Notes under the pieces: generated by a model
What the model was told of the DNA's origin: nothing
Database searches by the model: none
Seen by the model: only the letters and a program-made list of their open reading frames with translations
Position numbers and translations under genes: made by a program
Assembly (NCBI RefSeq): GCF_035582795.1
Contig: NW_027445436.1
Location: forward strand, 5,020,770 to 5,084,769
Length of the DNA: 64,000 bases
Reading direction: 5' to 3'
Source: Mycteria americana
Lineage: Eukaryota; Chordata; Aves; Ciconiiformes; Ciconiidae
Shown: one piece after another, positions 11,314-30,062 of the stretch
Position numbering within the stretch: position 1 is the stretch's first letter
Layout of the letters: each line of letters starts with the position of its first letter

Positions 11314-11898
11314 TGTCGTGGTTTAGCCCCAGACGGCAACTAAGCACCACGCAGCCGCTCGCTCACTCCCCCCCCCCCGCGGTGGGATGGGGAAGAGAAT
11401 CGGAAGAGTAAAAGTGAGAACACTCGTGGGTTGAGATAAGGACAGTTTAATAGGGAAAGCAAAAGCCGTGCACGGAAGCAAAGCGAAGCAAGGAATTCAT
11501 TCACTACTTCCCATGGGCAGGCAGGTGTTCAGCCATCTCCAGGAAAGCAGGGCTCCATCATGCGTAACGGTTACTTGGGAAGACAAACACCATCACTCCG
11601 AATGTCCCCCCGTTCCTTCTACTTCCCCAGCTTATATACTGAGCATGAAGTCATATGGTATGGAATAGCTCTTTGGTCAGTTTGGATCAACAATCCTGGC
11701 TGTGTCCCCTCCCAGCTTCTTGGGCACCTGGCAGAGCATGGGGAGCTGAAAAAAAGTCCTTGACCAGTGTAAATACCGCTTAGCAACAGCCAAAACATCA
11801 GCGTGTTATCAATATTATTCTCATACTAAAACCCAAAACACAGCACTACACCAGCCACTAGGAAGGAAATCAACTCTATCCCAGCCAAAACCAGGACA
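11314..11898 (-). repeat. 5' LTR of the ERVL-like element
   Basis: The LTR is 585 bp with TGTC...GACA ends, nearly identical to 2222-2806. It is followed on the right by AGGGT, the second copy of the target-site duplication, and then by the interrupted class I pol. Confidence 0.9.
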
Positions 11899-14049: not shown

Positions 14050-14409
14050 CATGAGGGGAGTTGGTTGCCAGTCAGCCTTCTCCAGGCTTTTTCCTTTTTA
14101 GCGTTTCCTTGAACGCTACTGTCACTTCTATGTCTGTTCTCCTTTCTTTAGCTGCTGCAGGCCCAGACAAGAATGCAGACAAGTCACGGCACACTTCTGA
14201 CTTCTCCCCCTCAGTCAGTCAGCTGCAGCTTTTTGAAACGTTCACCACCCCATAATATTCTGGTGGTGGAAGAGGGCCCACATAACTTTGATTTTCAGCA
14301 ATGCTAAAATAACCTTTGCAGTCCTCGATACCCAAAGCTTGGGGAAGGCAGGAGCCTTCCTTCATGGGTAAAAACTTTAAAGGGTCTATGACATATACTC
14401 AGGCTGGGT
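14050..14409 (-). pseudogene. DNA polymerase B fragment, block after exonuclease motif II
   Basis: On the minus strand about 14405-14240 encodes VIDPLKFLPMKEGSCLPQAL then CKGYFSIAENQSYVGPLPPP and EYYG. This pattern (D-x-L-x-FLPM, LP-x-A-x-G, KGYF, NQxYVGPxPxxYY) is typical of protein-primed family B polymerases of Maverick/Polinton and adintovirus elements, between exonuclease motif II and the palm. It continues the polymerase part at 17726-19180 after removal of the intervening CR1. Past 14240 the frame degrades to a stop and a basic stretch, then the polyadenylation signal. The palm motifs (SLYP, DTDS) are absent, so the polymerase domain proper is lost. Confidence 0.75.
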
Positions 14410-14469
14410 ACTTCTATGCACATGATGTGACAGGAAGGGATCAGAAAATCAGGAGAGGCCGGGAAGACG

Positions 14470-17400
14470 AGGAGGGGGAGTTGCCTTTAATGTGAGAGAA
14501 CAGCTGGAATGTATGGAGCTCTGCCTGGGAATGGATGAGGAGCCAACTGAGAGCTTATGGGTAAGGATTAAAGAGCAGACCAGACCAGTATGGGTGACAC
14601 TGTAGTGGGTCTGCTATAGGCTGCCTGACAAGGAAGAACAAGTGGATGAGGCCTTCTACAGACAGCTAGAAGCAGCCTCATGCTCACAGGCCCTGGTCCT
14701 CATGGAGGACTTCAACCACTCCGATATCTGCTGGAGGGACAACACAGCGGGGCATAAGCAATCCAGGAGGTTCCTGGAGAGCATCAATGACAACTTCCTG
14801 ACCCAAGTGATAGAGAAGCCAATGAGGAGAGGTGCTCTACTGGAACTTATACTCCCATACAAGGAAGGGGTCATTGGGGATGTGAAGGTCAAAGGCAGCC
14901 ATGGCTGCAGTGACCATGAGATGATGGAGTTGAGGATCCTGAGAGGAGGGAGCAGGACAAAAAGCAGGCTCACAGCCCTGAACTTCAGGAGAGCAGACTT
15001 TGGCCTCTTCAGAGATCTGCTTGGTAGAGTCCCAAGGGATAAGGCCCTGGAGGGAAGAGGGGCTCAAGAAAGCTAGTTAATATTCAAGCATCACCTCCTC
15101 CAAGCTCAAGAGCGATCCATCCCAATGAATAGGAAGTCAGGCAAAAATGCCAGGAGGCCTGCGTGGATGGACAAGGAGCTCCTGGCTGTGCTGGTTTTGG
15201 CTGGGACAGAGTTAATTTTCTTCATAGTAGCTTGTATGGGGCTATGTTTTGGATTTGTGCTGGAAACAGTGTTGATTACACAGGGATGTTTTAGTTATTG
15301 CTGAGCAGTGCTTACACAGCATCAAAGCCTTTTCTGCTTCTCACACCACCCCACCAGCGAGTAGGCTGGGGGTGCACAAGAAGCTGGGAGGGGACACAGC
15401 TGGGACAGCTGACGCCAACTGACCAAAGGGATATTCCATACCATATGACATTGTGCTCAGCAATAAAACCTGGGGGGAAGAAGAAGGAAGTGGGGGACGT
15501 TCGGAGTGATGGCGTTTGTCTTCCCAAGTAACCATTACGCGTGATGGAGCCCTGCTTTCCTGGAGATGGCTGAACACCTGCCTGCCCATGGGAAGTAGTG
15601 AATGAATTCCTTGTTTTGCCTTGCTGGGGTATGCAGCTTTTGCTTTACCTATTAAACTGTCTTTATCTCAACCCATGAGTTTCTTTCTCACTTTTACCCT
15701 TCCGATTCTCTCCCCCATCCCACTGTGGGGGGAATGAGCGAGCGGCTGTGTGGTGCTTAGTTGCTGGCTGGGGTTAAACCACAACACTGGCCAAACTCAG
15801 ACACAAAAAGGAAGCATATAGAGGGTGGAAGCAAGGACAGGTAACTTTGGAGGAATACAGAGACATCGTCCAAGCATGCAGGGATGGGGTTAGGAAAGCC
15901 AAAGCCCTAATGGAATTGAATCTGGCGAGGGATGTCAAAGGCAACAAGAAGGGCTTCTCTAAGTACATAGGTGACAAAAGGAAGGCTAGGGAAAATGTGG
16001 GCCTGCTGCTGAGTGGCACATGGTGACATGGGACATGGAAGAGGCTGAGGTACCGAATGCCGCCTTTGCCTCAGACTTTACTAGCAAGATTGGCCTTCAG
16101 GAATCCCAGGTCCCAGAGACCAGGGGGAAAGCCTGGAGCAAGGAAGACGTACCCATGATGGAAGAGGATCAGGTCAGGGAATACTTAAGCAAACTGGACC
16201 CTGATGGGATGTGCCCAGGAGGGCTGAGGGAGCTGGCAGATGTCATTGCGAGGCCACTCTCAATAATCTTTGAACAATCATGGCGACTGGGAGAGGTGCC
16301 TGGGGAATGGAGGAAAGCAAATGTCGCTCCTGTCTTCAAAAAGGGGAAGAAGGAGGACCCAGGGAACTACAGGCCAGTCAGCCTCATCTCGATCCCTGGG
16401 AAGGCGATGGAGCAGCTAATCCTGGAAACCATTTCCAGGCACATGAAGGGCAAGAAGGTTATTGGGAGTAGTCAGCATGGCTTCACCAAGGGGAAGTCAT
16501 GCTTGACCAACTTGAAAAACTTCTATGATGAAGTGACTGGCCTGGTAGATGAGGGGAGAGCAATGGATATTGTCTACATAGACTTCAGGAAGGCTTTCGA
16601 CACTGTCTCCCATTAGAGCCTCATGGAGAAGCTGATGAAGTATGGGCCAGATGAGCAGACAGTGAGGTGGTTTGAAAACTGGCTGAATGGCTGAGCCCAC
16701 AGGGTGGTGATCAGTGGCACAAAGTCTAGTTGGGGGCCAGTAACTAGCAATGTACCCCAGGGGTCAACAGTGGGTTCAGTCCTGTTCAACATCTTCATTA
16801 ATGATCTGGATGCTGGGGCAGAGTGTACCCTCAACAAGTTTGCTGATGACACAAAACTGGGAGGAGTGGCTGATACGCCAGAGGGTCGTGCTGCCAGTCA
16901 GAGGGACCTGGACAGGCTGGAGAAATGGGCTGACAGGAACCTCATGCAGTTCAACAAGGGGAAGTGTCAAGTCCTGCACCTGGGGAGGAACAACCCCAGG
17001 CACCAATATATGCTGGGGGCACCTGGCTGGAGAGCAGTTTTGCAGAAAAGGACCTGGGGGTCCTGGTGGGCACCAGGTTGAACATTGGCCAGCAACGTGC
17101 CCTCGCTGCAAAGGCGGCTAATGGTATCCCAGACTGCATTAGGAAGATTGTTGTAAGCAGTTTGAGGGAGGTGATCCTTCCCCTCTCCTCAGCACTGGTG
17201 AGGCCACACCTGGAGTCCTGTGTCCAGTTCTGTGCTCCTGAGTACAAGAGAGACATGGACATACTGGAGGGGCTCCAACAAAGGGCCACAAAGATGATTA
17301 AGGGACAGGAACATCTCTCACATGAGGAAAAGCTGAGAGAGCTGGGACTGTTTAGCCTAGAGAAGAGAAGGCTCAGGGGGGAATCTTATTAATGTGTTAT

Positions 17401-17640
17401 AAATACCTGAAGGGAGGGTGTAAAGAAGACGGAGCCAGGCTCTTTTCATTGGTGTCTAGTGACAGGACAAGAGGCAATGGGCACAAACGGAAACACAGGT
17501 GGTTCCGTGTGAACATCAGGAAACACTTTATTACTGTTGAGGGTGACTGAGCACTGGAACAGATTGCCCAGAGAGGTTGTGGAGTCTCCCACCTTGGAGA
17601 TATTCAAAAGTCATCTGGACATAGTCCTGGGCAACCGGCT
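14470..17640 (+). pseudogene. CR1 ORF2 remnant
   Basis: Broken ORF2. Endonuclease blocks include ALVLMEDFNHSDICWRD (about 14690) and GCSDHEMMELRIL (about 14905). After the solo LTR the frame resumes, with RT blocks NYRPVSLISIPGKAMEQL (about 16366), HGFTKGKSCLTNL (about 16475), YIDFRKAFDTVSH (about 16575), [15 protein letters not shown] (about 16752) and FADDTKLGG (about 16838). Stops at about 16615 and 16693 and several indels disable it. The C-terminal region extends to about 17640. Confidence 0.85.
15187..15786 (+). mobile_element. Solo LTR (ERVL-like family) with TSD CTGGC
   Basis: A 600-bp LTR with ends TGTGCTGGTTTTGGC...AACCACAACA. Identical CTGGC lies on both sides (15182-15186 and 15787-15791), and the CR1 ORF2 reading joins across it ([12 protein letters not shown]). 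The sequence is the plus-strand relative of the LTRs at 2222 and 11314. It carries AATAAA at 15462-15467. No internal region remains, so it is the product of LTR-LTR recombination. Confidence 0.95.
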
Positions 17641-17725
17641 CTAGGTGGCCCTGCTTGAGCAGGGCAGTTGGACAAGATGACCTCCATAGGTCCCTTCCAA
17701 CCTCAACCATTCTGTGATTCTATGA

Positions 17726-19180
17726 GTTTACCACCTTGGGTGATTAATTGCAATTCCATTTTTTCCTTCAGAAGCTGACTAACAACAAAGTAGCCATCAT
17801 AGCCTTTGGCATTATGCGCTAGGAAAGTGTAGCCCCAAAACTTTGTGTCCGTAAACAACTGAATAAAGTTCATGAGACATATGTCCCCTTTAAACTCCCA
17901 TTCTCCTTCAAATTTCCTTTCTGCCTTTTCTTCTTCATCCCAAGGGGCATCCGGAGCTAACTCCATGGCAAAAATGTAGTTCTGGATATGTGTCCCGGTT
18001 TCCTACATACATTCCATGTCATAGATAATATAGCCCTGCCCTGCTTCTGCATTTTTGATCACGGTCACAAAACACTGGTGCTGGCTTACATTACAGACCT
18101 TTTTATAGCACATTCCACACTTCCAGCACATTCCATCACATTCGTGATGTTTTTCTGCATAGGCCTTACACTTCTCAGCCAAACAATTAATTTCTTTTTT
18201 AATAGCCTGGGCCTTGTGCCTCTGTAAACATTCCCCAGACCTGCACAACAGCCTTCAGATGGGACACCTTATCCTTGTCCCCAAGTTAACAGCACAGTCA
18301 TGAGACAAGCAGAGCCGGCAATAATATTTACAGCTATGGCCATGGTTATGCAATGTATGACAAAGCTCACAAAAGTTTCTTGCCCCAAATACCTTCCTCA
18401 CATCCTTAACCCCATAATAATGTTCATGATGTAAATGGAGGAAACAGGTCTTGGGATATCTAAGACTGTCGTTTGGCTTAAAGATCCCCCAAGCCTTTTT
18501 CCCCTCAGATAGGAGGATGATGCATATATTAACATGTATCAATTCCTCAAACAAGGGGATGTCACTCAGCATGACCTTCCTGTGCACAGACCACCCCAGT
18601 TTGTTACGTAGCTCTTTTGCTCTGCTTAACAGTTCCGCATCTGTCAGATCCTTCACTGCTGTATGCGCTGTGAGACTCCCAGCAAAACAGAGATTATTGT
18701 TGCTGTTATTTAGATCAATTAAATAGCGATGCTTTTGGTCTATAGTTTTGGAATGGAGGATATAGGCTGCAGGGTTCTGCATAGCCCACTCCCAATGACT
18801 TTTACAATAATGATAGCCAGTCTGATCAAAACACAGCGCTCTCTTACTTTGCAGGAGAGTACTGACCCAGTCTAAACATTTTGCAGCATTCATATTGTTT
18901 AAATTAATGGCGGGAGAATATAAAGGGTCATGCATGCTGGCAGCTTCAAGATGGACCTAAGCCTAATCACCAGGTTCAAACAGCTGACATAAATGGTCAG
19001 ATATTTGCTCTACACCCCAAACAAACGTTTCATAAGCTTCATGTAGTGGTACCTGATCTAAATTAACAAATCTGTATTCTTCTACGTATCACCTAGCTCT
19101 GAACTGGCTCTGGATCGGCCAGTCCCACTGCCGAACATGCTCCATGGAAGCCATGGGGCGGTCTGCTGCCTCCTCTACCA
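17726..19180 (-). pseudogene. Protein-primed DNA polymerase B, N-terminal and exonuclease part
   Basis: Reading leftward from about 19160: the FVNLDQVPLHEAYETFVWGV and LFEPGD blocks, then YSPAINLNNMNAAKCLDWV (N-terminal domain, with two stops near 18960), a Cys/His-rich zinc region (FCELCHTLHNHGHSC, CRLCLSHDC, CDGMCWKCGMCYKKVC; 18060-18370), exonuclease motif I YIIYDMEC (about 18010-18035) followed by ETGTHIQN, and motif II FLAHNAKGYDGYF (about 17795-17835). It ends at LITQGGK where the CR1 begins. The order and the Cys-rich insertion before exonuclease I fit Maverick/Polinton or adintovirus polymerases. Frame breaks: a stop inside ECM*ETG (about 18000), one near 18245, and two near 18960. 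An adenovirus origin is less likely from the motif context but not excluded. Confidence 0.75.
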
Positions 19181-19558
19181 CCTCTGCTACATTTGAGGGT
19201 GGGGGTAAAGCTGGTCTTTCCAATGCCCTCTCAGGCATTGGGAGTGCAACAGGTGGCCCCCCCGGGAAACATCCTCATTGTGTTTGACAGCCTCTTGCTC
19301 TGCAGGGGGATGCAGTAACCGGGAAGTCCCTTCCAGGGTGTCATCTTCTACCCTAGTGGGAGACATGTTCACTGGCCCACCACGTTCAGAAAAACAGTTT
19401 GCATTTAAGGGCCCTTGTGGTCCCCCGTAACCCCTTGCCAACAAGACATTTGCAGCAACGCAAAATTCATTTAGCTTTCCTAATTAGCAGTCTTTGTTTT
19501 AACAGCTTTTTCTGTTTTGCTAGCCTGTAAGCCAAGGCCTCAAAACTAACAGACCCAC
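19181..19558 (-). pseudogene. Unrecognised ORFs upstream of PolB
   Basis: Two leftward stretches. 19187-19444 encodes a Gly/Pro/His-rich polypeptide that could be the polymerase N-terminus or an unrelated piece. 19467-19558 encodes the basic end SFEALAYRLAKQKKLLKQRL of a protein that, once the solo LTR at 19559-20217 is removed, continues in frame with 20222-20330. The C-terminus is strongly basic and helical in composition, as in nucleic-acid-binding or minor capsid proteins. I do not recognise a family. Confidence 0.35.
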
Positions 19559-20217
19559 TGTCACCGAAATCGGGAATCAAACTCCTTAACACCAATGCAG
19601 CATTAAGAAGCAGGCATTCTTTATTACGGCGCCGGATGCACGGGGGATCATTCCACCTAGCGTGCATACCGCAGGTTACATCAACCAAAGCTTATATTGT
19701 CCAGTTACATACATATGCATCAAATTTCCCAGAATGATCATGCATATTCATTCTATTTCCCAGAACTAATTATCATATTTGCATGGTCATTACGCATGCA
19801 TCCTTGAACTCCGAGGGGCTTCCGTGGGGGTCTCTGGTGGTCCTGGGTGGTCGTACAGGTGTGTCCTTTAGCTGACCCCTTCTTATGGGCATGCGCAATA
19901 TCGTCTTGCTTATGTAACTTGCTTCCCTTCTTCACGGTGCATGGTCCCTAACAATGATTTGGCACCCTTATTCCTATTCTAACACAAACCAATTATTCTA
20001 ACTACCCCTCGACTCATTGTCAAGATGGGCTGGGACTGTACTGGGAGCATAGCAGCATGTCCGTACTACTCCTTGTCCTATTGTCTTTGGGCATAGTAGC
20101 ATATCCATAGCCATAGATGTATAAACACAACATTAAAGTATTGTCTACCCGGCTCCTATCTCTATGTTGCTTAGTTACAAAAGAACAAACTAATAATTTT
20201 GGTTACATTTGGTTACA
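19559..20217 (-). mobile_element. Solo LTR with TSD CCAC
   Basis: A 659-bp LTR with ends TGTCACCG...GGTTACA, flanked by CCAC on both sides (19555-19558 and 20218-20221). A minus-strand AATAAA lies near 19618-19623 within TTCTTTATTACGG, giving leftward orientation. The 4-bp duplication and the left-end sequence resemble the class I LTRs at 20445 and 27382. Confidence 0.9.
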
Positions 20218-20221
20218 CCAC

Positions 20222-20444
20222 CAGCCTTTTTATCACCACCATCCGGTCTGCTACTTCTTTGTGCCTGAAAATGATCATGGTCTTTCAGCTCTGCAACACC
20301 CCCTTGCTCGTACTGATCTGCTTGCTCTTTCTGCGGTAGCTGTGATCTCTAAGAGCATAGGGCTGTGGTCTGTGTCCCAAAGCCTGGATCTTGCTGCTTT
20401 TGCAGTAATCATTGTCTAACAGAACTGTCTTGACTGCATGCTTG
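20222..20444 (-). pseudogene. Continuation of unrecognised basic ORFs, split by a provirus
   Basis: Minus-strand reading from 20444: one frame gives VKTVLLDNDYCKSSKIQALG and then a basic tail up to a stop near 20287; another gives EQGGVAELKDHDHFQAQRSS and joins the frame at 19467-19558 across the solo LTR. The first frame is continuous with 28084-28112 once the provirus at 20445-28083 and its CTTG duplication are removed. No family recognised. Confidence 0.35.
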
Positions 20445-21146
20445 TGTTGCCGTGAAAAGCCGAAATCAGAACTCAATAGTCGGGATGACTATTAAGCAGG
20501 TATTCTTTATTGCAGCGCTGGGCAGCACTGGGGATCGCTCCGCAACAAGTGCTCCGACAAACAAGCAAGATCACAGAGGTTATATGTTGCAAAATATACA
20601 TATTCATAAGATTAATTTATATAAACATGAGATTTCTTGGAACTCATTAATATATGTAAATGTCCCTGACGCATGCGTACTTAAGTCCTTAGGTGGTCGT
20701 TAGGGATCCTCTGGTGGTCGTTGGAGGAAGTCAGTAGTCTTCATCACTCTGACCGCTGACTGAACTTTGTCTTTACGCATGCTCAGTCCATCTTTGTCTT
20801 GCTCATACCTTCCTTGCATATCCAAAATCAGGTGGTTCTTGTGTAGTTTCTCCTTATCAGCCCTTTCCAGGGACACAGGGCCTGAAGAATTCCTCTTTAT
20901 CTGTCTTCATTGCAACTATCTCGGCTAACCAAGGATTTAACACAGGCAAAGCATTCTTACTCTAATGATTAGGTCAAATAAAGAAAGCTCATTAGCAATT
21001 CTACTATCTAAGCTTCCTTACTTAAGGCCAACAATACTGGCAAGCTAGGCCAAATTATCTGCGAAAGGGAGACTAAAAGGAAACATTGAGCAACCAAGAT
21101 ATTTACAGCATTTCTTTTTTGTCTTAGGGGATTTTAGCTCTTTTCA
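20445..21146 (-). repeat. 3' LTR of the young class I provirus
   Basis: The LTR is 702 bp, TGTTGCCG...CTCTTTTCA on the plus strand, the same as 27382-28083. The minus strand carries AATAAA near 20505-20510 (in the TTCTTTATTGC context). Confidence 0.95.
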
Positions 21147-21361
21147 TTCCCCCCTTTTCTTTAAACTTTGTAAATTCTTTTACAAAGGTTCTAAATTAAA
21201 AGTCATTACTATTTCCACATATTTCTTTCAATTATTCGCTTTACACAGCCAACACAAATGGCAAGGATGATAACAATTATTATCTAACATTAAATTGTTA
21301 GCATCCTCTTCACACAAACTTTTACACACTAGTAAACGAGCGCATAGCAGCATCAGTAAAA
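21147..21361 (-). other. Polypurine tract and short 3' internal region, no env
   Basis: Next to the 3' LTR the minus strand reads AGAAAAGGGGGGAA (21147-21160), a textbook polypurine tract. The remaining 200 bases are AT-rich and hold no envelope-like coding sequence (no signal peptide, no CX6CC region). Confidence 0.85.
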
Positions 21362-24300
21362 CTACTTTCGGGTCAATCTTACGGACGTTGGTCCCGTAGG
21401 CTGAGATTTCCATGGTCCAGTAGGTGCTTTCTTAATTCTCGAATAGTGGATCCACGCAGCGTGCTTCTCAAGCTTAACTGCAGTGTAGGTTGTGAGCAGA
21501 ACTTGAAAAGGGCCACTCCATTTCTCTTCAAGAGGGTCACCTGAAATATTTTTAACATAAACCCAATCCCCAGGTTTAAACAAGTGCACCGGAGAATCTA
21601 AACCCCACGCTCTGGTAGATACCACCAATTTATTTACTTCTTGTAATTGTTTTCCTAATGCTATTAGATATTGCTGTAAGCTAATTTCCCCTGCTTGGGT
21701 GAGATCTTGCCCTCGATATCTGGTTTGAAATGGTCTCCCATATAAAATCTCAAAGGGACTCAATTTCTCTTTAGTCCTTGGTTTAGTTCGAAGTCTCAAT
21801 AATGCAATTGGGAGGGCCTGATCCCATCTCAAGTTGGTTTCCTGACAAATTTTGCTCAATTGTGTTTTTATCATATGGTTCATTTTCTCTACCTGTCCAC
21901 TTGCTTGTGGGCGGTAGGCTGTATGCAATTTCCAATTAATTTCTAAAAACTTACTAGCTTGCTGAACTACCTGTGACACGAAGTGTGGCCCTCTGTCAGA
22001 GGAGATAACTTCTGGCACTCCAAACCTAGGAATAATTTCTCTTAATAAAACTTTTGTTACTTCTCGAGCTTTATTTGTTCTGCAAGGGAAAGCTTCAGGC
22101 CATCCAGAGTAGGTATCTGTTAACACCAACAGATACCTATACCCCCCTTTTCTAGGGAGCTCCGAAAAGTCTATTTGCCAGTTTTGACCTGGAACATTTC
22201 CTTTGCCTATGCTTCCAAATTTTACACGATTTTCTACCTTTGGGTTATTTTTCAAACATGTCTCACACCTATCAACCACACTTTTCACAGTTTGAAACAA
22301 ATTTCTAGCCACTATCTGCTTAGTGAGAGAGTTATACAGAGCTTCAGTTCCCCAGTGAGTTTTATCATGTTCAGTCTTTGTCAGTGCCCACAGTAGTCTA
22401 AAGGGGATTATTATCCTGTTATCTTTTAACACTGCCCATCCTGATAGGCCAATTTTAGCCTCTAAGTCAGTAATTAACTTCTGATCCTTTTCATCGTATT
22501 CAGCTGATTCAGGTAGTGGCAAAGATTTTTCAGGAATTAAACTTAGTATCTCACCTTGTTCCGCTGCTTGCCTTGCTTCATAATCAGCCAACTTATTTCC
22601 CACTTCCCTGTCAGTGTTACCTTTCTGATGTCCTTTGCAGTGCATAATTGCCACTGCTGACGGAAGTTGCACAGCTTCTAAAAGTCGCAGTATTATATCA
22701 GCGTGTTTTATACCTTTCCCTTGAGCGGTTAAGAGTCCTCGCTCCTTCCAAATTGCTCCGTGAGCATGCACTACGCCAAAGGCATATTTTGAATCTGTCC
22801 ATATATTCACGCGCAGTCCTTTGGCAAGCTCCAGTGCTCTCACTAAGGCAACTATTTCGGCTCGTTGTGCAGATGTGCCTTTAGGGAGTGACTTTGCTTC
22901 CACCACCTGATCTGTGGTGGTCACAGCATATCCTGCCATTCGAACTCCATTCTTTACAAAACTACTCCCATCGGTATACCAAGTGTGGTCAGCTTCTTCC
23001 AGTGGCTCATCCTTCAGGTCAGGCCTGCTTGCGTATACGGTCTCAATGGTTTCTATACAATCATGTACAACAGTCTTCATTTCCTGCTTATTACTTAGAA
23101 AAGAAGCGGGGTTAATTACAGCAGATGTAACGATTTCAATATCGTCCTGTTCCATCAGGACTGCTTGATACTTCAGAAACCTTGATGGTGACAGCCAATG
23201 TCCTCCTTTTTGTTCCAAAACGGAAGTTACAGCATGGGAAGTATGCACAACCATCTTTTGTCCCAAGGTAAATTTTCGAGCTTCTTGAATGATCAAAACA
23301 ACAGCGGCAACTGCCCGAAGGCATCCCGGCCATCCTTTACTTACCTCATCCAATTGTTTGGAAAAATATGCTACTGCTCGTTTATAAGGACCCAGCCTCT
23401 GGGCTAGAATTCCCAAAGCCACTCCTTGTCTCTCATATGAGAACAACCAGAAGGGCTTTGTTATGTCTGGCAGGCCCAAAGCTGGAGCTCTCATTAATTC
23501 CAATTTCAATTCTTTGAATGCCCTCTTGGCTTCATCAGTCCATGTTAACTGTGTCTGACTATTTTTCAACAGTTCGTACAAGGGTTTAACTAAAAGTCCA
23601 TAATTATAAATCCATAATCGACACCAACCTGTCATTCCCAGAAAGGTTCGCAGCTCTTTTACTGTGGTCGGTTCTGGGGTCCTGCAGATGGCTTCTTTTC
23701 GGTCATTCCCGAGCTGTCTCTGTCCTTTAGAAATCACAAATCCCAAGTAGATTACTTCTTTTTTCAAGATCTGGACTTTCTGCAACGATACTCGATAACC
23801 ACTTAGTCCAAGAAAATTTAACAAACTCACAGTCCATTCCTTACATTCTTCTTCTTTTTCCGTAGCTATCAGAATATCATCCACATATTGCAAAAGGGTA
23901 CCATTTCCTGGAGGCCTTTCCCAGACCTCTAATTCTTTAGCCAATTGATTTCCAAAAATTGTGGGGCTATTCTTAAATCCTTGAGGTAACACTGTCCAGG
24001 TTAGTTGGGTTTTCCGTCCTGAATCAGGGTTTTCCCACTCAAAGGCAAAAAAGTTGCGGCTTTCAGGGGCCAAGGTGAGGCAAAAGAATGCATCTTTCAG
24101 ATCTAGTACTGTGAACCATTCATAGGTTTCTTTTAAACTGGTCAATAAAGTGTATGGGTTTGCCACTACCGGGTGCAAATCTTCAACTATCCGATTTATT
24201 GCTCGTAGGTCTTGCACCAATCGGTAGGTTTTGCCATCAGGCTTTTTGTCAGGCAGAATGGGAGTGTTGTACTCTGGAGAGCATTCAGTCAATAATCCGA

Positions 24301-24898
24301 ATTTTATAAATTCATCTATAATATGTTTCACTCCTCGTCTATCTTCCAATTTCAAAGGATATTGTTTCACCCTAATGGGTCGTGCTCCTTCTTTGAGTTT
24401 AACAACAACCAATTCCGCATTTTTAGCTTTTCCAGGTATTCCCGAGGCCCATACTCCTGGGTATACCTGGTCTTTTATTTCCTGCATAATTTCTTCTTCT
24501 CTAACTTGGGGTTCAGTGAGAACCAAACTTAAAATTTCAATGTGGTTTTCTTCTGGTATTTTAAATTCGATTTCCCCATCTTTAAATCTTATTTCAGCAT
24601 TCAATTGTTCTAATAAGTCCCTTCCCAAAAGTGGTCTAGGAGCTTCAGGCAAGTAGAGGGATTTATGAATCCCTACACTTTTTCCAATTTTAAATTTCAA
24701 TGGTCTTAGAAAGAAAGCCCTCTCAACCTGCCCTGTTGCTCCCACAATGTTGACAGTTTGTTTACTCACGGGCAATAAAGTCTGATTTAATACTGAAAAT
24801 GTGGCACCTGTATCTATTAAAAATTCTACAGGTTTTTCTTCTTTCCCTAGCTGAATTTTTACCAAGGGTTCTGCTAGGGAAGATTCCCCTGGTCCCCA
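21362..24898 (-). CDS. pol: Pol polyprotein: protease, RT, RNase H, integrase
   Basis: A single open frame of about 1178 codons from the gag stop (first Met codon at 24865). Protease: FLIDTGATFS near the start and LLGRDLLEQL. RT: LDLKDAFFCLTL, LPQGFKNSPTIFGNQL and catalytic YVDDILIA. RNase H: WYTDGSSF, AEIVALVRALELA and IWTDSKYAFG, with the second His region CKGHQKGNTDREVGNKLAD. Integrase: HHCC zinc domain (H near KTEHDKTHWGTEALYN, CETCLKNNP), core with QIDFSELP, ISSDRGPHFVSQ and SGQVEKMNHM, then a GPY/F module (KWSGPFQVLLTTYTAVKL). All catalytic residues are present. Expression would be by readthrough of the TGA at 24899-24901. No stop or frameshift is seen, unlike the other pol copies here. 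Confidence 0.95.
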   Translation of the reverse strand, partial: WGPGESSLAEPLVKIQLGKEEKPVEFLIDTGATFSVLNQTLLPVSKQTVNIVGATGQVERAFFLRPLKFKIGKSVGIHKSLYLPEAPRPLLGRDLLEQLNAEIRFKDGEIEFKIPEENHIEILSLVLTEPQVREEEIMQEIKDQVYPGVWASGIPGKAKNAELVVVKLKEGARPIRVKQYPLKLEDRRGVKHIIDEFIKFGLLTECSPEYNTPILPDKKPDGKTYRLVQDLRAINRIVEDLHPVVANPYTLLTSLKETYEWFTVLDLKDAFFCLTLAPESRNFFAFEWENPDSGRKTQLTWTVLPQGFKNSPTIFGNQLAKELEVWERPPGNGTLLQYVDDILIATEKEEECKEWTVSLLNFLGLSGYRVSLQKVQILKKEVIYLGFVISKGQRQLGNDRKEAICRTPEPTTVKELRTFLGMTGWCRLWIYNYGLLVKPLYELLKNSQTQLTWTDEAKRAFKELKLELMRAPALGLPDITKPFWLFSYERQGVALGILAQRLGPYKRAVAYFSKQLDEVSKGWPGCLRAVAAVVLIIQEARKFTLGQKMVVHTSHAVTSVLEQKGGHWLSPSRFLKYQAVLMEQDDIEIVTSAVINPASFLSNKQEMKTVVHDCIETIETVYASRPDLKDEPLEEADHTWYTDGSSFVKNGVRMAGYAVTTTDQVVEAKSLPKGTSAQRAEIVALVRALELAKGLRVNIWTDSKYAFGVVHAHGAIWKERGLLTAQGKGIKHADIILRLLEAVQLPSAVAIMHCKGHQKGNTDREVGNKLADYEARQAAEQGEILSLIPEKSLPLPESAEYDEKDQKLITDLEAKIGLSGWAVLKDNRIIIPFRLLWALTKTEHDKTHWGTEALYNSLTKQIVARNLFQTVKSVVDRCETCLKNNPKVENRVKFGSIGKGNVPGQNWQIDFSELPRKGGYRYLLVLTDTYSGWPEAFPCRTNKAREVTKVLLREIIPRFGVPEVISSDRGPHFVSQVVQQASKFLEINWKLHTAYRPQASGQVEKMNHMIKTQLSKICQETNLRWDQALPIALLRLRTKPRTKEKLSPFEILYGRPFQTRYRGQDLTQAGEISLQQYLIALGKQLQEVNKLVVSTRAWGLDSPVHLFKPGDWVYVKNISGDPLEEKWSGPFQVLLTTYTAVKLEKHAAWIHYSRIKKAPTGPWKSQPTGPTSVRLTRK

Positions 24899-26450
24899 TC
24901 AATTTTCTTCCGTGTTGGCTACCATCACCGATTTGCCCAGTCTCGGGCAATCTTTTTTTCCAGTGCCCCAGTTGTTTACAATAGGCACACTGATCTTTCA
25001 AGAGGGGTTTATTTCCTCTATTCCCTCTAAGTGGGGCACTTGCACCACTTCTCATAACTCCTCTCCCCTCATTGCTGTTGCTCTGAGGGGGTATCTGACC
25101 TTCTACGGTGCGCAAAGCAGCTACTGTAGCATTAGCAATTGTTTTACCCATTTGTTTTTCCTTTCGACTATCTCTATTCCGATACACTTGCCAAGCAGTT
25201 TCCAATAACCTTTCCAAGTCCCTTGCATCTGCCCCTTGCACTTTCTGTAATTTCCTTCTAATATCATCCACCGACTGTCCCAGAAACAGAAATATTAGCT
25301 GACTTTTACCTTCTTGAGAGGTAGGGTCTAAAGGAGTATATTTCCGCATTCCTTCCTTTAGCCGATTCAAAAAGTCAGTAGGTGACTCCTTTTTATCTTG
25401 TTTTATCTCATACAGCTTAGACCAATTTACTGATTTTGGGACAGCATTTCTTATTCCGTACGCAATCCATTCCCTGTACCGCACTAGTAAATTCCTGGTT
25501 CCCATCTGGTTAGGGTCCCAGCCGGGATTGGTAATTGGAACATGATTATCCACTGTTCCTGGCAGAGTCCCAGCCAGCACCAGAGCCTGCACCTGAGTCC
25601 TAGCTGCTCTCACAACCATCTGTTTTTCTGATTCACTGAACACTGCATCCAGCATTGCATCCACATCCTCCCAGTCAGGGTCCTGGGTTTTCACAATCAA
25701 TTCAAATCCTTTAGCAACCCTCTCAGGGTCGTCCCGATAATTCCCTGCAGTAACTCGCCAGCCGTCCAAGTCTGCTAAAGTGAAAGGTACTTTAATTCTA
25801 ACAGGTCCTCCCGCTCCCATCGCTTGTCTTAAGGGAGCCTGTATCGCAGGTCCCACTTTGCTTCGGGTCCTGGTGGTTATGGGAGAAAACCTAATATCTG
25901 TTTCCTCTCTCTCTCTCGTCTCCGGCTCTTCTCTCCCAACAGCACCCGCATCTCCTTCTCTATCACCTTCCCTTTCTAGCGGAGGCAAATAATCCTCTAA
26001 CCTTTCATTCTGCGAACCAACTTTCAAACATCTCTGTCCAATGCTACACGCCGAGCAACACCTTTTCAATATCCTATTTTGCTTATTTCTCTCCTTTTCT
26101 ATCACCAAGACCATAGGGTCCTGGGGCGCCAAATTAATTCCGCACTCTTTCTGCCACTCAGGGTGATTCCGCAGAGTGAAAAACATATCTGCATAAACCA
26201 CCTCATCCCATTTTCCTTCCCGCCACAAAAATAACATGAGTTGCAACAAAGTATTATACTTCAAAGTTCCGTTCAAAGGCCATTTTTCACCATCTTCTAA
26301 TTTGTACAGGGGCCACCACTGATCACAGTATTTGATTAACGTTTTCTTATTCACACTTCCACCTGGTTGTCCCCCTATCTCTTTCCAGTGTGCTAAGATA
26401 CATCCTAGAGGGCTTTTCTTTACAATACCACCACTTTGCTGTCCCCCCAT
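24762..26450 (-). CDS. gag: Gag polyprotein, shifted near its C-terminus
   Basis: Starts MGGQQSGGIVKKSPL at 26450; Gly2 suggests myristoylation. The matrix part (about residues 1-125) is followed by an acidic/proline linker with EDYLPPLERE, a capsid of gammaretroviral style (PFTLADLDGW near residue 220, and the major-homology-like region ESPTDFLNRLKEGMRKYTPL near 365), then a basic nucleocapsid with CAYCKQLGHWKK. At a run of seven A (minus strand; 24953-24959) the frame leaves the zinc knuckle before its last Cys, and the open frame instead runs on to 24762, overlapping pol. The other frame at that point completes the knuckle and reaches the TGA just before pol, so a single-base insertion is likely. 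It could also be an assembly error in a homopolymer. Confidence 0.9.
   Translation of the reverse strand: MGGQQSGGIVKKSPLGCILAHWKEIGGQPGGSVNKKTLIKYCDQWWPLYKLEDGEKWPLNGTLKYNTLLQLMLFLWREGKWDEVVYADMFFTLRNHPEWQKECGINLAPQDPMVLVIEKERNKQNRILKRCCSACSIGQRCLKVGSQNERLEDYLPPLEREGDREGDAGAVGREEPETREREETDIRFSPITTRTRSKVGPAIQAPLRQAMGAGGPVRIKVPFTLADLDGWRVTAGNYRDDPERVAKGFELIVKTQDPDWEDVDAMLDAVFSESEKQMVVRAARTQVQALVLAGTLPGTVDNHVPITNPGWDPNQMGTRNLLVRYREWIAYGIRNAVPKSVNWSKLYEIKQDKKESPTDFLNRLKEGMRKYTPLDPTSQEGKSQLIFLFLGQSVDDIRRKLQKVQGADARDLERLLETAWQVYRNRDSRKEKQMGKTIANATVAALRTVEGQIPPQSNSNEGRGVMRSGASAPLRGNRGNKPLLKDQCAYCKQLGHWKKRLPETGQIGDGSQHGRKLMGTRGIFPSRTLGKNSARERRKTCRIFNRYRCHIFSIKSDFIARE
24899..24901 (-). other. Gag-pol boundary TGA, candidate readthrough stop
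   Basis: In the pol frame, the end of the nucleocapsid is followed by TGA and then pol continues without another stop. Gag and pol in one frame separated by one stop is the gammaretroviral readthrough arrangement. The bases after the stop are GC-rich (TGGGGACCAGGGGAA), and a downstream structure would be expected but was not computed. Confidence 0.7.
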
Positions 26451-27360
26451 TCTACCTTATTGATTCTGTACTTCCGTTATTCTCCCACAGATTATTTTAA
26501 TAACCTCAACCTGTCGCGCTTTATTCTCCCACTCTGACCACATTCCACAATTCTCACATTGAATAAACAATTCACAAGGAAAAGCGGTTCACATTCATTT
26601 TCAGGATGAGACGCACAGGTCTCCAGGTTTTCCACACTCACTTTGCAGTCACACTGTGTTTCAGTCACTCACCAGTCACACCAGAGTTAACTCAGCTCAT
26701 TCACGCTTAGTTGCCGATTTCGCAGTGCCTAACGAATATATCCAAATTCAATACCAATAAACCAATATCCGAGTTTGGTGCCAGTAAATCCATACCGCCA
26801 ACAGTACAAACTCATGCGGGTTTCATAAGTGTACCAATACCAAAAGGCACGTTCTTGCAGAAGTACAAGGCTTAACCCGTGCCTGTACCAACATACCACC
26901 AACAGTACAAACTCATGCGGGTTTCATGAGTGTACCAATACCAAAAGGCACGTTCTTGCAGAAGTACAAGGCTTAACCCGTGCCTGTACCAACGTACCAC
27001 CAACAGTACAAACTCATGCGGGTTTCATGAGTGTACCAATACCAAAAAGCACGTTCTTGCAGAAGTACAAGGCTTAACCCGTGCCTGTACCAACGTACTA
27101 AATACCAAATGTATACCCTCAGGCACTAGTAGCCTGGTATACGGCGCTCAGCGTAGGACGTCTCCTACGACTTATGAGAACCTTCCAAATGACCAGTCCC
27201 AAATTCCAAAACAGAAAAGATTTAAAGAATACCTTTTTCCTTTAGATGGTCCTTGTCTGCTCCCGCAGTGATCCGATTGAGGCGAGGAGTCCCTCCGGGA
27301 AATCCCGGGGGTACCCTAGGGAGTCCTGTTCTCAGCGGGTCCTGCAGCCGAGCAGAGCGG
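26451..27360 (-). promoter_or_regulatory. Provirus leader, probable packaging region, no ORF
   Basis: A 0.9-kb stretch between the primer binding site and the gag start. It is long for a gammaretroviral leader and should contain the packaging signal and dimer linkage. It holds three tandem 101-bp repeats (listed separately). Open frames on the plus strand here are antisense and repeat-driven, so they are not genes. Confidence 0.7.
26801..27100. repeat. Three tandem 101-bp repeats in the provirus leader
   Basis: The unit beginning ACAGTACAAACTCATGCGGG starts at 26801, 26902 and 27003, exactly 101 bases apart, and copies differ by only a few bases (for example CATAAG/CATGAG and AAAGGC/AAAAGC). 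The third ends near 27100. They lie in the region expected to hold the packaging signal. Confidence 0.95.
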
Positions 27361-27378
27361 GTCCCATCTGGGGTGCCA
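27361..27378 (-). promoter_or_regulatory. Primer binding site of the young provirus
   Basis: The minus strand reads TGGCACCCCAGATGGGAC three bases after the 5' LTR. It begins TGG as all tRNA-primed sites do. I cannot assign the tRNA with confidence. The related provirus at 34402-41408 has TGGCAACCCAGGTGGGAC at the same place. Confidence 0.75.
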
Positions 27379-27381
27379 AAC

Positions 27382-28083
27382 TGTTGCCGTGAAAAGCCGA
27401 AATCAGAACTCAATAGTCGGGATGACTATTAAGCAGGTATTCTTTATTGCAGCGCTGGGCAGCACTGGGGATCGCTCCGCAACAAGTGCTCCGACAAACA
27501 AGCAAGATCACAGAGGTTATATGTTGCAAAATATACATATTCATAAGATTAATTTATATAAACATGAGATTTCTTGGAACTCATTAATATATGTAAATGT
27601 CCCTGACGCATGCGTACTTAAGTCCTTAGGTGGTCGTTAGGGATCCTCTGGTGGTCGTTGGAGGAAGTCAGTAGTCTTCATCACTCTGACCGCTGACTGA
27701 ACTTTGTCTTTACGCATGCTCAGTCCATCTTTGTCTTGCTCATACCTTCCTTGCATATCCAAAATCAGGTGGTTCTTGTGTAGTTTCTCCTTATCAGCCC
27801 TTTCCAGGGACACAGGGCCTGAAGAATTCCTCTTTATCTGTCTTCATTGCAACTATCTCGGCTAACCAAGGATTTAACACAGGCAAAGCATTCTTACTCT
27901 AATGATTAGGTCAAATAAAGAAAGCTCATTAGCAATTCTACTATCTAAGCTTCCTTACTTAAGGCCAACAATACTGGCAAGCTAGGCCAAATTATCTGCG
28001 AAAGGGAGACTAAAAGGAAACATTGAGCAACCAAGATATTTACAGCATTTCTTTTTTGTCTTAGGGGATTTTAGCTCTTTTCA
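27382..28083 (-). repeat. 5' LTR of the young class I provirus
   Basis: The LTR is 702 bp, identical by eye to 20445-21146. It is followed by CTTG (28084-28087), the duplicated target. It should contain the promoter that drives leftward transcription of gag-pol. Confidence 0.95.
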
Positions 28084-28690
28084 CTTGGTCTCCTGCCTCT
28101 TCTTTTCAGCATTGCCCTAAGGATCAGGAAACACGTATAGCACCAGCCTGCACCCCATAATGGTCTTATTGGCAGCTGTAAGATCCACCACAACCATGGG
28201 CAAAGGGAGCTCCCCACCACCACCCACCCTCTCTGTGTGGCACTTACCTTGAAATCCAGTTTGAGATTCACAGGCTCATTGGCCATTTTTTCTGGTTTGC
28301 ATGGTCTTTTTTGGGAACCCCTTATGGTCTTTTTCTTATTTTCCCCACACACATGTTCTTCCAAAGTCAGCATCTGGTTCTGGTTTTTCCATTTTTGCAG
28401 ACAGTGCTGCCTGTATCTTGCAGCACCGTGCAAAGCCCAAAGTCTGCCCCAGTAATCCTGCATGGCCATGCTGTTGGGCTGGGCCTGGATGCAGGGGCCT
28501 CTCAGTCCAGCTCACAGGATTGGTCTCTTCTTTGCCTGTGACATCGTTTGAGCAGGGGGCCCCTTGGTGGGCCTCCTGGGAGGGGTCTGTAGCCCTCGGG
28601 CATGTTCCAACTTGTCTGTGCCCTCCCCCCCCTTTGGCGACCCTTCACCTTCTTAAAGTTCCCCCCCCACCCCAGACATGTTAGGGTTTG
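28084..28690 (-). pseudogene. Possible spliced gene of the PolB-bearing element
   Basis: Minus strand. A frame from about 28540 reads AKKRPIL, a stop, then MAMQDYWGRLWALHGAARYR and a basic region ending NEPVNLKLDFK, immediately followed by CAAGGTAAGT, a strong splice donor (about 28252). An acceptor-like pyrimidine tract and AG (CCTGATCCTTAG) ends near 28113. Joining the two keeps the frame, which then runs across the provirus TSD into the VKTVLLDNDYCKSS frame at 20287-20444. This would be a small basic protein with an intron. I do not recognise it. It may belong to the same DNA-virus-like locus as PolB, which has the same strand, but could also be host sequence. Confidence 0.3.
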
Positions 28691-28984
28691 TTCTGCAGCC
28701 TGGTAAAGTGGGGGATCCGAACCCTGCCTTTTACTTTTGCTTAATTACTTTCTATTCCCATTTCATCTTTAATTATTCATTCCATTAGTTTTTATTAAAG
28801 AATGTTTTGTCCTTTTTATACCTATGTTTTTTAATATAAATGTATATAGAAGTATATATTTAAAATAGTGTATTTATCTGTAAATAAATAAAATATATAT
28901 TTATACATATTTGTATACCCCTTTATATATATATAGCTCTATGTACGAATATATTGTATATAATTATAAATATTTTTATATCTG
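28691..28984. other. AT-rich spacer, nothing recognised
   Basis: AT-rich stretch with runs such as ATATATATTTATACATAT and no coding or repeat family that I can name. It separates the putative spliced gene from the CCAAT repeat array. Confidence 0.5.
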
Positions 28985-29690
28985 AGCACTTCCTGATCCA
29001 AAGGAAGCGGGCAGCCAATCACAGGGCAGCCTGAGAACACATGGGTATGACGGTATCAAGAAATAGCTGTCAGCCAATCACAATGCAGTATGAAAACACA
29101 TGGGAAATAGCGCTGTCAAAAGTGGGAGCCTCCCTGTATGTAATGACAGGGGGCTTCCTTTTCTGACGTGCTTCCGGGTACACTGGTCGGGGAGGCTAGT
29201 CCTGCCAGCCAATTACAGGGCAGTATGAAAACACATGGAGCATGACATTGTCGAAAATGGTGGCTAGCAGCCACAAAATGTTGGCTGAAACAACTTGGCA
29301 GGCCCTGCGTAATTAGTGAGAGGGTTTTTTCTGCTCTGGCATCATTCTAGGGTAAACAGGAAGGGGTGGCTGGTCCTGCCAGTCAATCACAGGGCTCCCT
29401 GAGAACACGTGGGTATGACAGTGCCAAGAAATGGCCGTCAGCCAATCACAGAGCAGTATGAAAACATGTGGGTTATGACTTTTAACAAAATGGCAGCTCC
29501 CTTCCATAAAATGGCGGCGTCCTGTGTATGTAGGGGAAGGGTTTTCTGGGTCTGATGTACTTCTGGGTAAACTGGTAGGGGGTGGCTAGTCCTGCCAGCC
29601 AATCAGAACAGACCACATGACTGGAAGAGGGGAGGGACTTCCAGAGAAAATGGCGCATGAGGCTGCTCGGAGGGGGGTAGGGCACCATTT
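28985..29690. repeat. Degenerate direct repeats with CCAAT boxes
   Basis: The motif AGCCAATCACAGGGCAG followed by TATGAAAACACATGGG or CCTGAGAACACATGGG recurs at about 29012, 29073, 29205, 29377 and 29438, with a shorter copy at 29595. Pairs are offset by 365 bases (29012 to 29377, and 29073 to 29438), which shows a repeat unit of about 365 bp. Other shared pieces are GGGTAAACTGG, GGTGGCTAGTCCTGCCAG and AAAATGG. Each unit has CCAAT boxes (NF-Y type) and a CTTCCGGGT Ets-like site. It looks like a duplicated promoter or enhancer, not a coding region. Confidence 0.75.
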
Positions 29691-30062
29691 ACTTATTATC
29701 TTGCTTATCAGTTGAGCCTATGCTACTGGCACTCTGCCTATTGTAAAAGGCTGCTGCATACATCATACGGAATAGCAACCACTCTGTAACAAGGGCTTGG
29801 AATAAGCCCCGTATCATCTTAAATGTTTGGGCTAGCTTCAAACTTGGTAGTACACAATGGTTTCAACTATTACAATAAAATATTCAAACAGACCTTCATG
29901 ATTTATGATATAGAACAGAACTCTTGAGAGCAGAGCTCTCAAAACATTTAGATTTTGATAACTTTATCAGTTTGAGGGGAAAAACTGGAAAAAGAACTTG
30001 AGATGTGTATTATTTTCCCTTTGCAGAGATTTTGTGACCGAAACCAAAAATTAGTATCAGTC
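29691..30062. other. Intergenic, nothing recognised
   Basis: Single-copy-looking sequence without an open frame or known repeat, between the CCAAT array and the solo LTR at 30063. Confidence 0.5.

What the first reader, a model, noticed from the sequence alone, without database searches (positions are those of the whole stretch)
14050..19180. Remnant of a Maverick/Polinton- or adintovirus-like DNA polymerase in a bird genome
Minus-strand blocks in the correct order: N-terminal domain, Cys/His-rich zinc region, exonuclease motif I (YDMEC then ETGTH), motif II (HNAKGYDGYF) and, across a CR1, the FLPM...KGYF...NQSYVGPLP block. Protein-primed PolB of this kind marks Mavericks and adintoviruses, which as I recall are abundant in fish and reptiles and rare or decayed in birds. 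This may be an endogenous large DNA virus not described in this lineage.
Basis: partly seen in the sequence, partly recalled or inferred. Interest (0 to 1): 0.9.

Follow-up and report, generated by a model that had tools for sequence, protein, structure and literature searches.

The report
Decayed Maverick virus fossil in bird
A broken fragment of a Maverick, an old DNA virus that inserts itself into animal genomes, lies buried under later insertions on a bird chromosome; fossils of this kind were already known from birds, so it is one more dead copy rather than a new virus.

Summary
[quoted passage not shown] Pfam finds nothing significant in the pieces alone, but paralogs in the same genome that align through these stretches match DNA_pol_B_2 above its cut-off. 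Several relatives of that end start AGTAGT, and one 1,732-bp deleted copy has inverted ends AGTAGT//ACTACT, 93% alike, with a perfect 6-bp target-site duplication. These are the published ends of vertebrate Mavericks (PMC8097293). So it is a Maverick, dead, with PolB in at least 35 places of this genome. It is not a virus new to birds: degraded avian Mavericks are in print. New but unproven: 8 of 35 places sit on a 16.5-Mb, W-like contig holding 1.2% of the genome.

The parts
18957..19148 (-). PolB N-terminal region, 3 in-frame stops in the frame of P0001
   Evidence: tblastn of P0001 against the window, one alignment 19148-18342; stops counted
18258..18956 (-). PolB N-terminal domain with Cys/His region, open 233-aa piece
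   Evidence: hhalign of alignment A1 to the L022 ORF: probability 82%, E 1e-5, 198 columns
18006..18254 (-). PolB Cys/His region and exonuclease motif I (YDMEC)
   Evidence: weak against distant relatives when taken alone
17706..18002 (-). PolB exonuclease region to motif II (HNAKGYDGYF)
   Evidence: the last residues may already be CR1
14234..14426 (-). PolB block after the exonuclease, FLPM...CKGYF...YVGPLPPPEYYG, in two frames
   Evidence: tblastn of P0005 and P0006; DNA homology to paralogs 14245-14425
14427..17724 (+). CR1-type LINE inserted into PolB (edges approximate), with a nested LTR at 15186-15786
19150..19558 (-). Maverick region upstream of PolB, with a short ORF ending at 19467
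   Evidence: homologous DNA beside PolB in paralogs
19559..20217 (-). solo LTR inserted in the element, 4-bp duplication GTGG
   Evidence: sequence; empty sites in 11 of 11 loci
20218..20444 (-). Maverick region upstream of PolB, continued
20445..28083 (-). young endogenous retrovirus inserted in the element: identical 702-bp LTRs, 4-bp duplication CTTG
   Evidence: empty site within 15 bp in 9 of 10 loci, the tenth at 17 bp
28084..29011 (-). Maverick region upstream of PolB, continued
   Evidence: homologous DNA in paralogs
29012..29727 (-). terminal repeat region of the Maverick; terminus at 29727 reads AGTAGCATAGG
   Evidence: 55 matches in own genome, a lower bound; terminus aligned with other copies

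Best explanation
This is the polymerase end of a dead Maverick (Polinton; adintovirus-like) provirus. Inferred history: a Maverick replicated with a protein-primed PolB and integrated into an ancestral bird germline with 6-bp target-site duplications; copies multiplied, then decayed. This copy kept its terminal repeat (ending at 29727), the region between end and PolB, and the first part of PolB, pointing inward from the terminus. A CR1, a solo LTR and a retrovirus inserted into it, and stops and a frameshift broke the frame. Everything beyond about 14234 (rest of PolB and the other core genes) is lost or was not recognised here. Shown: homology, order, insertions, terminus, decay. Inferred: the way it replicated and integrated, from the family.
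For: PF03175 above cut-off at 10 of 10 listed matches in the same genome, in loci such as L024, L025, L026, L028 and L030 that align at about 77-85% DNA identity through the window's two PolB stretches. P0005, 71% identical to piece 3 over half of it, scores 24.8 bits for PF03175, just under the cut-off of 25.8, and shows the two window stretches as neighbours. Piece 1 is collinear with a bivalve-type PolB N-terminus. Terminus AGTAGC here, AGTAGT in L064, L067 (both ends) and L069; L067 has both ends, inverted repeats 93% alike over 297 bp, and GGGGAC on both sides. Published ends are (AGT)2//(ACT)2 with the PolB module facing inward and flanking accessory regions, and 6-bp duplications.
Against: No significant Pfam match in the window pieces themselves (best E 0.18, an unrelated family; none for piece 4). 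No integrase, capsid or ATPase of Maverick type recognised in the window (148 of 154 ORFs of 85 aa or more) or clearly beside seven paralogs (one Adeno_IVa2 match at E 0.02, not located). The window copy's other end was not found, so its own 6-bp duplication is untested; its terminus differs from (AGT)2 at one base, L063 reads AGTATT, and L065, L066 and L068 gave no such end. The structure model of a related fragment was useless (pLDDT 38.9).
Confidence: 0.95

Rival explanations
1. An endogenised adenovirus or other protein-primed virus polymerase, not a Maverick.
For: PF03175 covers several protein-primed polymerases (recalled); no direct comparison with an adenovirus polymerase was made here.
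Against: Multicopy family with inverted ends AGTAGT//ACTACT and a 6-bp duplication in one member, the published Maverick ends.
Confidence: 0.03
2. A host polymerase relic or contaminating bacterial or phage DNA.
For: Weak phage DNA polymerase family match to piece 3 (E 0.073).
Against: The gene is split by a CR1-type LINE and flanked by LTRs and a retrovirus; at least 35 places in the same assembly; no relative of the pieces found in viral contigs.
Confidence: 0.01
3. A polymerase fragment kept by the host for a new function.
For: A 233-aa piece without stops survives.
Against: Five in-frame stops across 17706-19148, a frame change and an inserted LINE inside the gene; many other copies carry stops too.
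Confidence: 0.01

Closest known systems
Degraded Mavericks of birds and other tetrapods (PMC8097293, PMC9683012; passages and, for the first, section 7)
   Same: PolB, (AGT)2 end motif, 6-bp duplication in the family, inward PolB module with a region before it, heavy decay
   Different: Only one end and the front part of PolB remain here; nested insertions; clustering on one contig
Adintoviruses
   Same: Recalled to be the same broad group as animal Mavericks, with the same type of PolB
   Different: No virion genes recognised here; the paper PMC8502044 is not held
Adenovirus polymerase
   Same: Protein-primed family B polymerase (recalled)
   Different: Adenoviruses do not form TIR-bounded multicopy insertions with 6-bp duplications (recalled); not compared directly here

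Membership tests
Maverick/Polinton | protein-primed PolB (DNA_pol_B_2) | tested here: met
   not significant in the window pieces alone; in aligned paralogs above cut-off and in P0005 just below it
Maverick/Polinton | end motif (AGT)2//(ACT)2 | tested here: met
   window AGTAGC, one base off; L064, L067 (both ends), L069 exact; L063 AGTATT; none seen in L065, L066, L068; motif
Maverick/Polinton | terminal inverted repeats | tested here: met
   in L067, 93% over 297 bp; the window copy shows one end only
Maverick/Polinton | 6-bp target-site duplication | tested here: met
   GGGGAC in one copy, L067; not testable for the window copy
Maverick/Polinton | PolB module pointing inward, accessory region between end and PolB | tested here: met
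   against section 7 of PMC8097293
Maverick/Polinton | retroviral-type integrase | tested here: inconclusive
   rve matched 2 of 71 and 1 of 77 window ORFs, among retroviral genes; none assigned to the element
Maverick/Polinton | major and minor capsid, protease, ATPase | tested here: inconclusive
   83 chosen of 143 ORFs listed (1198 ORFs in 12 loci), from 7 of 12 fetched paralog flanks: Adeno_IVa2 once at E 0.02, not located in the ten ORFs; PF21738 did not complete
Adenovirus | best match to adenovirus polymerase | not tested
   no such reference was fetched
Adintovirus | virion or exogenous genome | not testable with these tools
   decayed integrated copy only

The most novel reading that the evidence does not exclude
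The bird W chromosome is a refuge for fossil DNA viruses as well as for retroviruses: Maverick copies lost elsewhere survive there, and an end-only derivative (L067) shows that Maverick ends were still mobilised in the bird germline.
Probability: 0.3. Interest if true: 0.5.

Novelty: new member of a known kind. Interest (0 to 1): 0.3.

Why it matters
It adds a well-bounded avian Maverick locus with its terminus, a set of later insertions and many comparable paralogs in one genome. The concentration of copies on one W-like contig, if confirmed, would make it possible to ask whether Mavericks vanished from birds by loss of infection or by removal through recombination.

Tried and rejected
Viral contigs gave no relative of the pieces or of P0025. 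Motif patterns gave a phage protein, 19 mostly unrelated stretches, one hit in which my script found no matching frame and none. A profile of the fragments against the one PolB-like viral-contig protein gave probability 9%, E 0.004. PDB searches gave nothing relevant. The structure model of P0004 was too poor to use. An apparent pair of inverted ends on C33 (15587184 and 15610288) is an identical inverted duplication that includes LTR flank, not one element. CHD1-type matches fell on C32, C228, C6 and C15, not on C33, so C33 as W is unproven. Against a special role of C33: the small contigs C35 and C36 (2.7 and 2.5 Mb) hold 3 of the 35 places each, and C32 holds 6 where 2.1 are expected.

Full report
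What is there. Minus-strand reading gives three open pieces in one frame, 18956-18258, 18254-18006 and 18002-17706, and a fourth within 14398-14222. Searched apart, Pfam reports nothing significant for them. Protein searches found fragments of the same gene in public sequence: 3 for piece 1 among 94 candidates, 5 for piece 3 among 6 candidates and 22 with a profile among 285 candidates, of which 5 were the query's own members and 17 new. Tblastn of P0001-P0008 back to the window delimits the homology as 19148-17709 and 14426-14234.

Why it is PolB. P0005 carries DNA_pol_B_2 (precomputed; 24.8 bits, one bit under the cut-off); the other fragments scanned do not reach it. In the same genome the family has 10 listed matches, all above cut-off: 6 on C33, 2 on C32, 2 on C35; it rang in 0 of 14 control genomes. 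Loci behind these matches align with the window's two stretches at DNA level. Piece 1 is collinear with the N-terminal ORF of a contig filed under a Solemya velum gill symbiont (hhalign probability 82%, E 1e-5; BLASTP 25% over 106 aa; 0 of 500 shuffles as good). Piece 3 matches P0025, a more distant open fragment (0 of 500 shuffles as good), though P0025 itself has no Pfam match. Pieces 2 and 4 are not convincing alone in that test. Downstream of PolB in paralogs, 4 of 83 chosen ORFs match DNA_pol_B_2.

Where it ends. P0001 begins with residues that match a repeat array at 29.0-29.6 kb in the window. That array has at least 55 matches in the genome (40 of 84 candidates scored). In paralogs such as L040 the blocks 17700-19160, 19150-19556, 20214-20444 and 28084-29011 follow one another, so what lies between them in the window is inserted. 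Empty-site tests: CR1 16 of 16 loci within 15 bp, solo LTR 11 of 11, retrovirus 9 of 10 with the tenth at 17 bp; some loci are the same place, which leaves by my count about 10, 9 and 9 places. The retrovirus has identical 702-bp LTRs and a CTTG duplication. The terminus is at 29727, AGTAGCATAGG, aligned with AGTAGT ends of L064, L067 and L069; L063 reads AGTATT, and L065, L066 and L068 gave no such end. L067 is a 1,732-bp copy with both ends, inverted repeats 93% alike over 297 bp and GGGGAC on both sides. PMC8097293, section 7 read in full, gives (AGT)2//(ACT)2 as the commonest vertebrate Maverick end and the inward PolB module; its 6-bp duplications are in passages.

State and age. Five in-frame stops lie in 17706-19148, and piece 4 needs two frames. 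About 3.9 kb of Maverick sequence remains of 15.5 kb between 14245 and 29727 (arithmetic from the parts table). Kimura distances from the window copy to 25 loci, of the 34 other places, are 0.115 to 0.305. With a recalled bird rate near 2e-9 per site and year this would be some 29 to 76 million years of separation between copies; this is a rough inference, and W-linked rates are recalled to be lower.

Distribution. 73 matches of piece 1 cluster into 35 places; C33 has 8 where 0.43 are expected by length, binomial p 9e-9; C32 has 6 where 2.1 are expected, p 0.016. C35 and C36, only 2.7 and 2.5 Mb long, have 3 each, so C33 is not alone. The 35 are not all independent: places on C22 and C248, and two on C36, have equal or nearly equal scores, and C33 holds at least one large inverted duplication. 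Counts are lower bounds by the tool's own words. C33 is 16.5 Mb and C32 80 Mb, sizes and order that suggest W and Z, but the CHD1-type family hit C32, C228, C6 and C15, not C33, and a second marker search did not complete. The W refuge for retroviruses is in print (PMC8310711, abstract and passages; 'Maverick' does not occur in its main text). I saw no paper on Mavericks of the avian W in the listings (6 papers; 10 of 100 listed), of which I opened only PMC8097293 and PMC8310711.

What is known. Passages of PMC8097293 and PMC9683012 state that Mavericks occur in birds and that those found so far are degraded. This locus is therefore a new member of a known kind. Membership rests on the PolB family match in aligned paralogs, the end motif, the inverted repeats and the 6-bp duplication of one copy; integrase and capsid genes were not established. 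Adenovirus polymerase was not compared directly.

Noticed in passing
20445-28083: Very young retrovirus with identical 702-bp LTRs and long ORFs at 24765-26456 (gag by position) and 21365-24898 (pol by reading); the second ends about 220 bp before the LTR, leaving no room for an env gene.
   Followed up: partly
2222-2806, 11314-11898, 15186-15786: Three LTR copies of one family; the first two are 99.7% identical, the third is nested in the CR1 at about 80%.
   Followed up: no
26778-27098: Three tandem copies of a unit repeated every 101 bp, near one LTR of the young retrovirus.
   Followed up: no
L022, L023: Two contigs filed as a gill symbiont of the clam Solemya velum encode Maverick-like PolB N-termini, probably host DNA in the assembly.
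   Followed up: partly
window 30-63 kb: One of 77 ORFs matches the A20-like zinc finger (E 5.9e-12); ten candidate ORFs tested did not locate it.
   Followed up: partly
C33:15586972-15610500 of the genome: Identical inverted 801-bp stretches about 23 kb apart, a palindrome-like duplication.
   Followed up: no
C6:46511573-46612058 of the genome: Cluster of Maverick-end-like sequences in both orientations.
   Followed up: no
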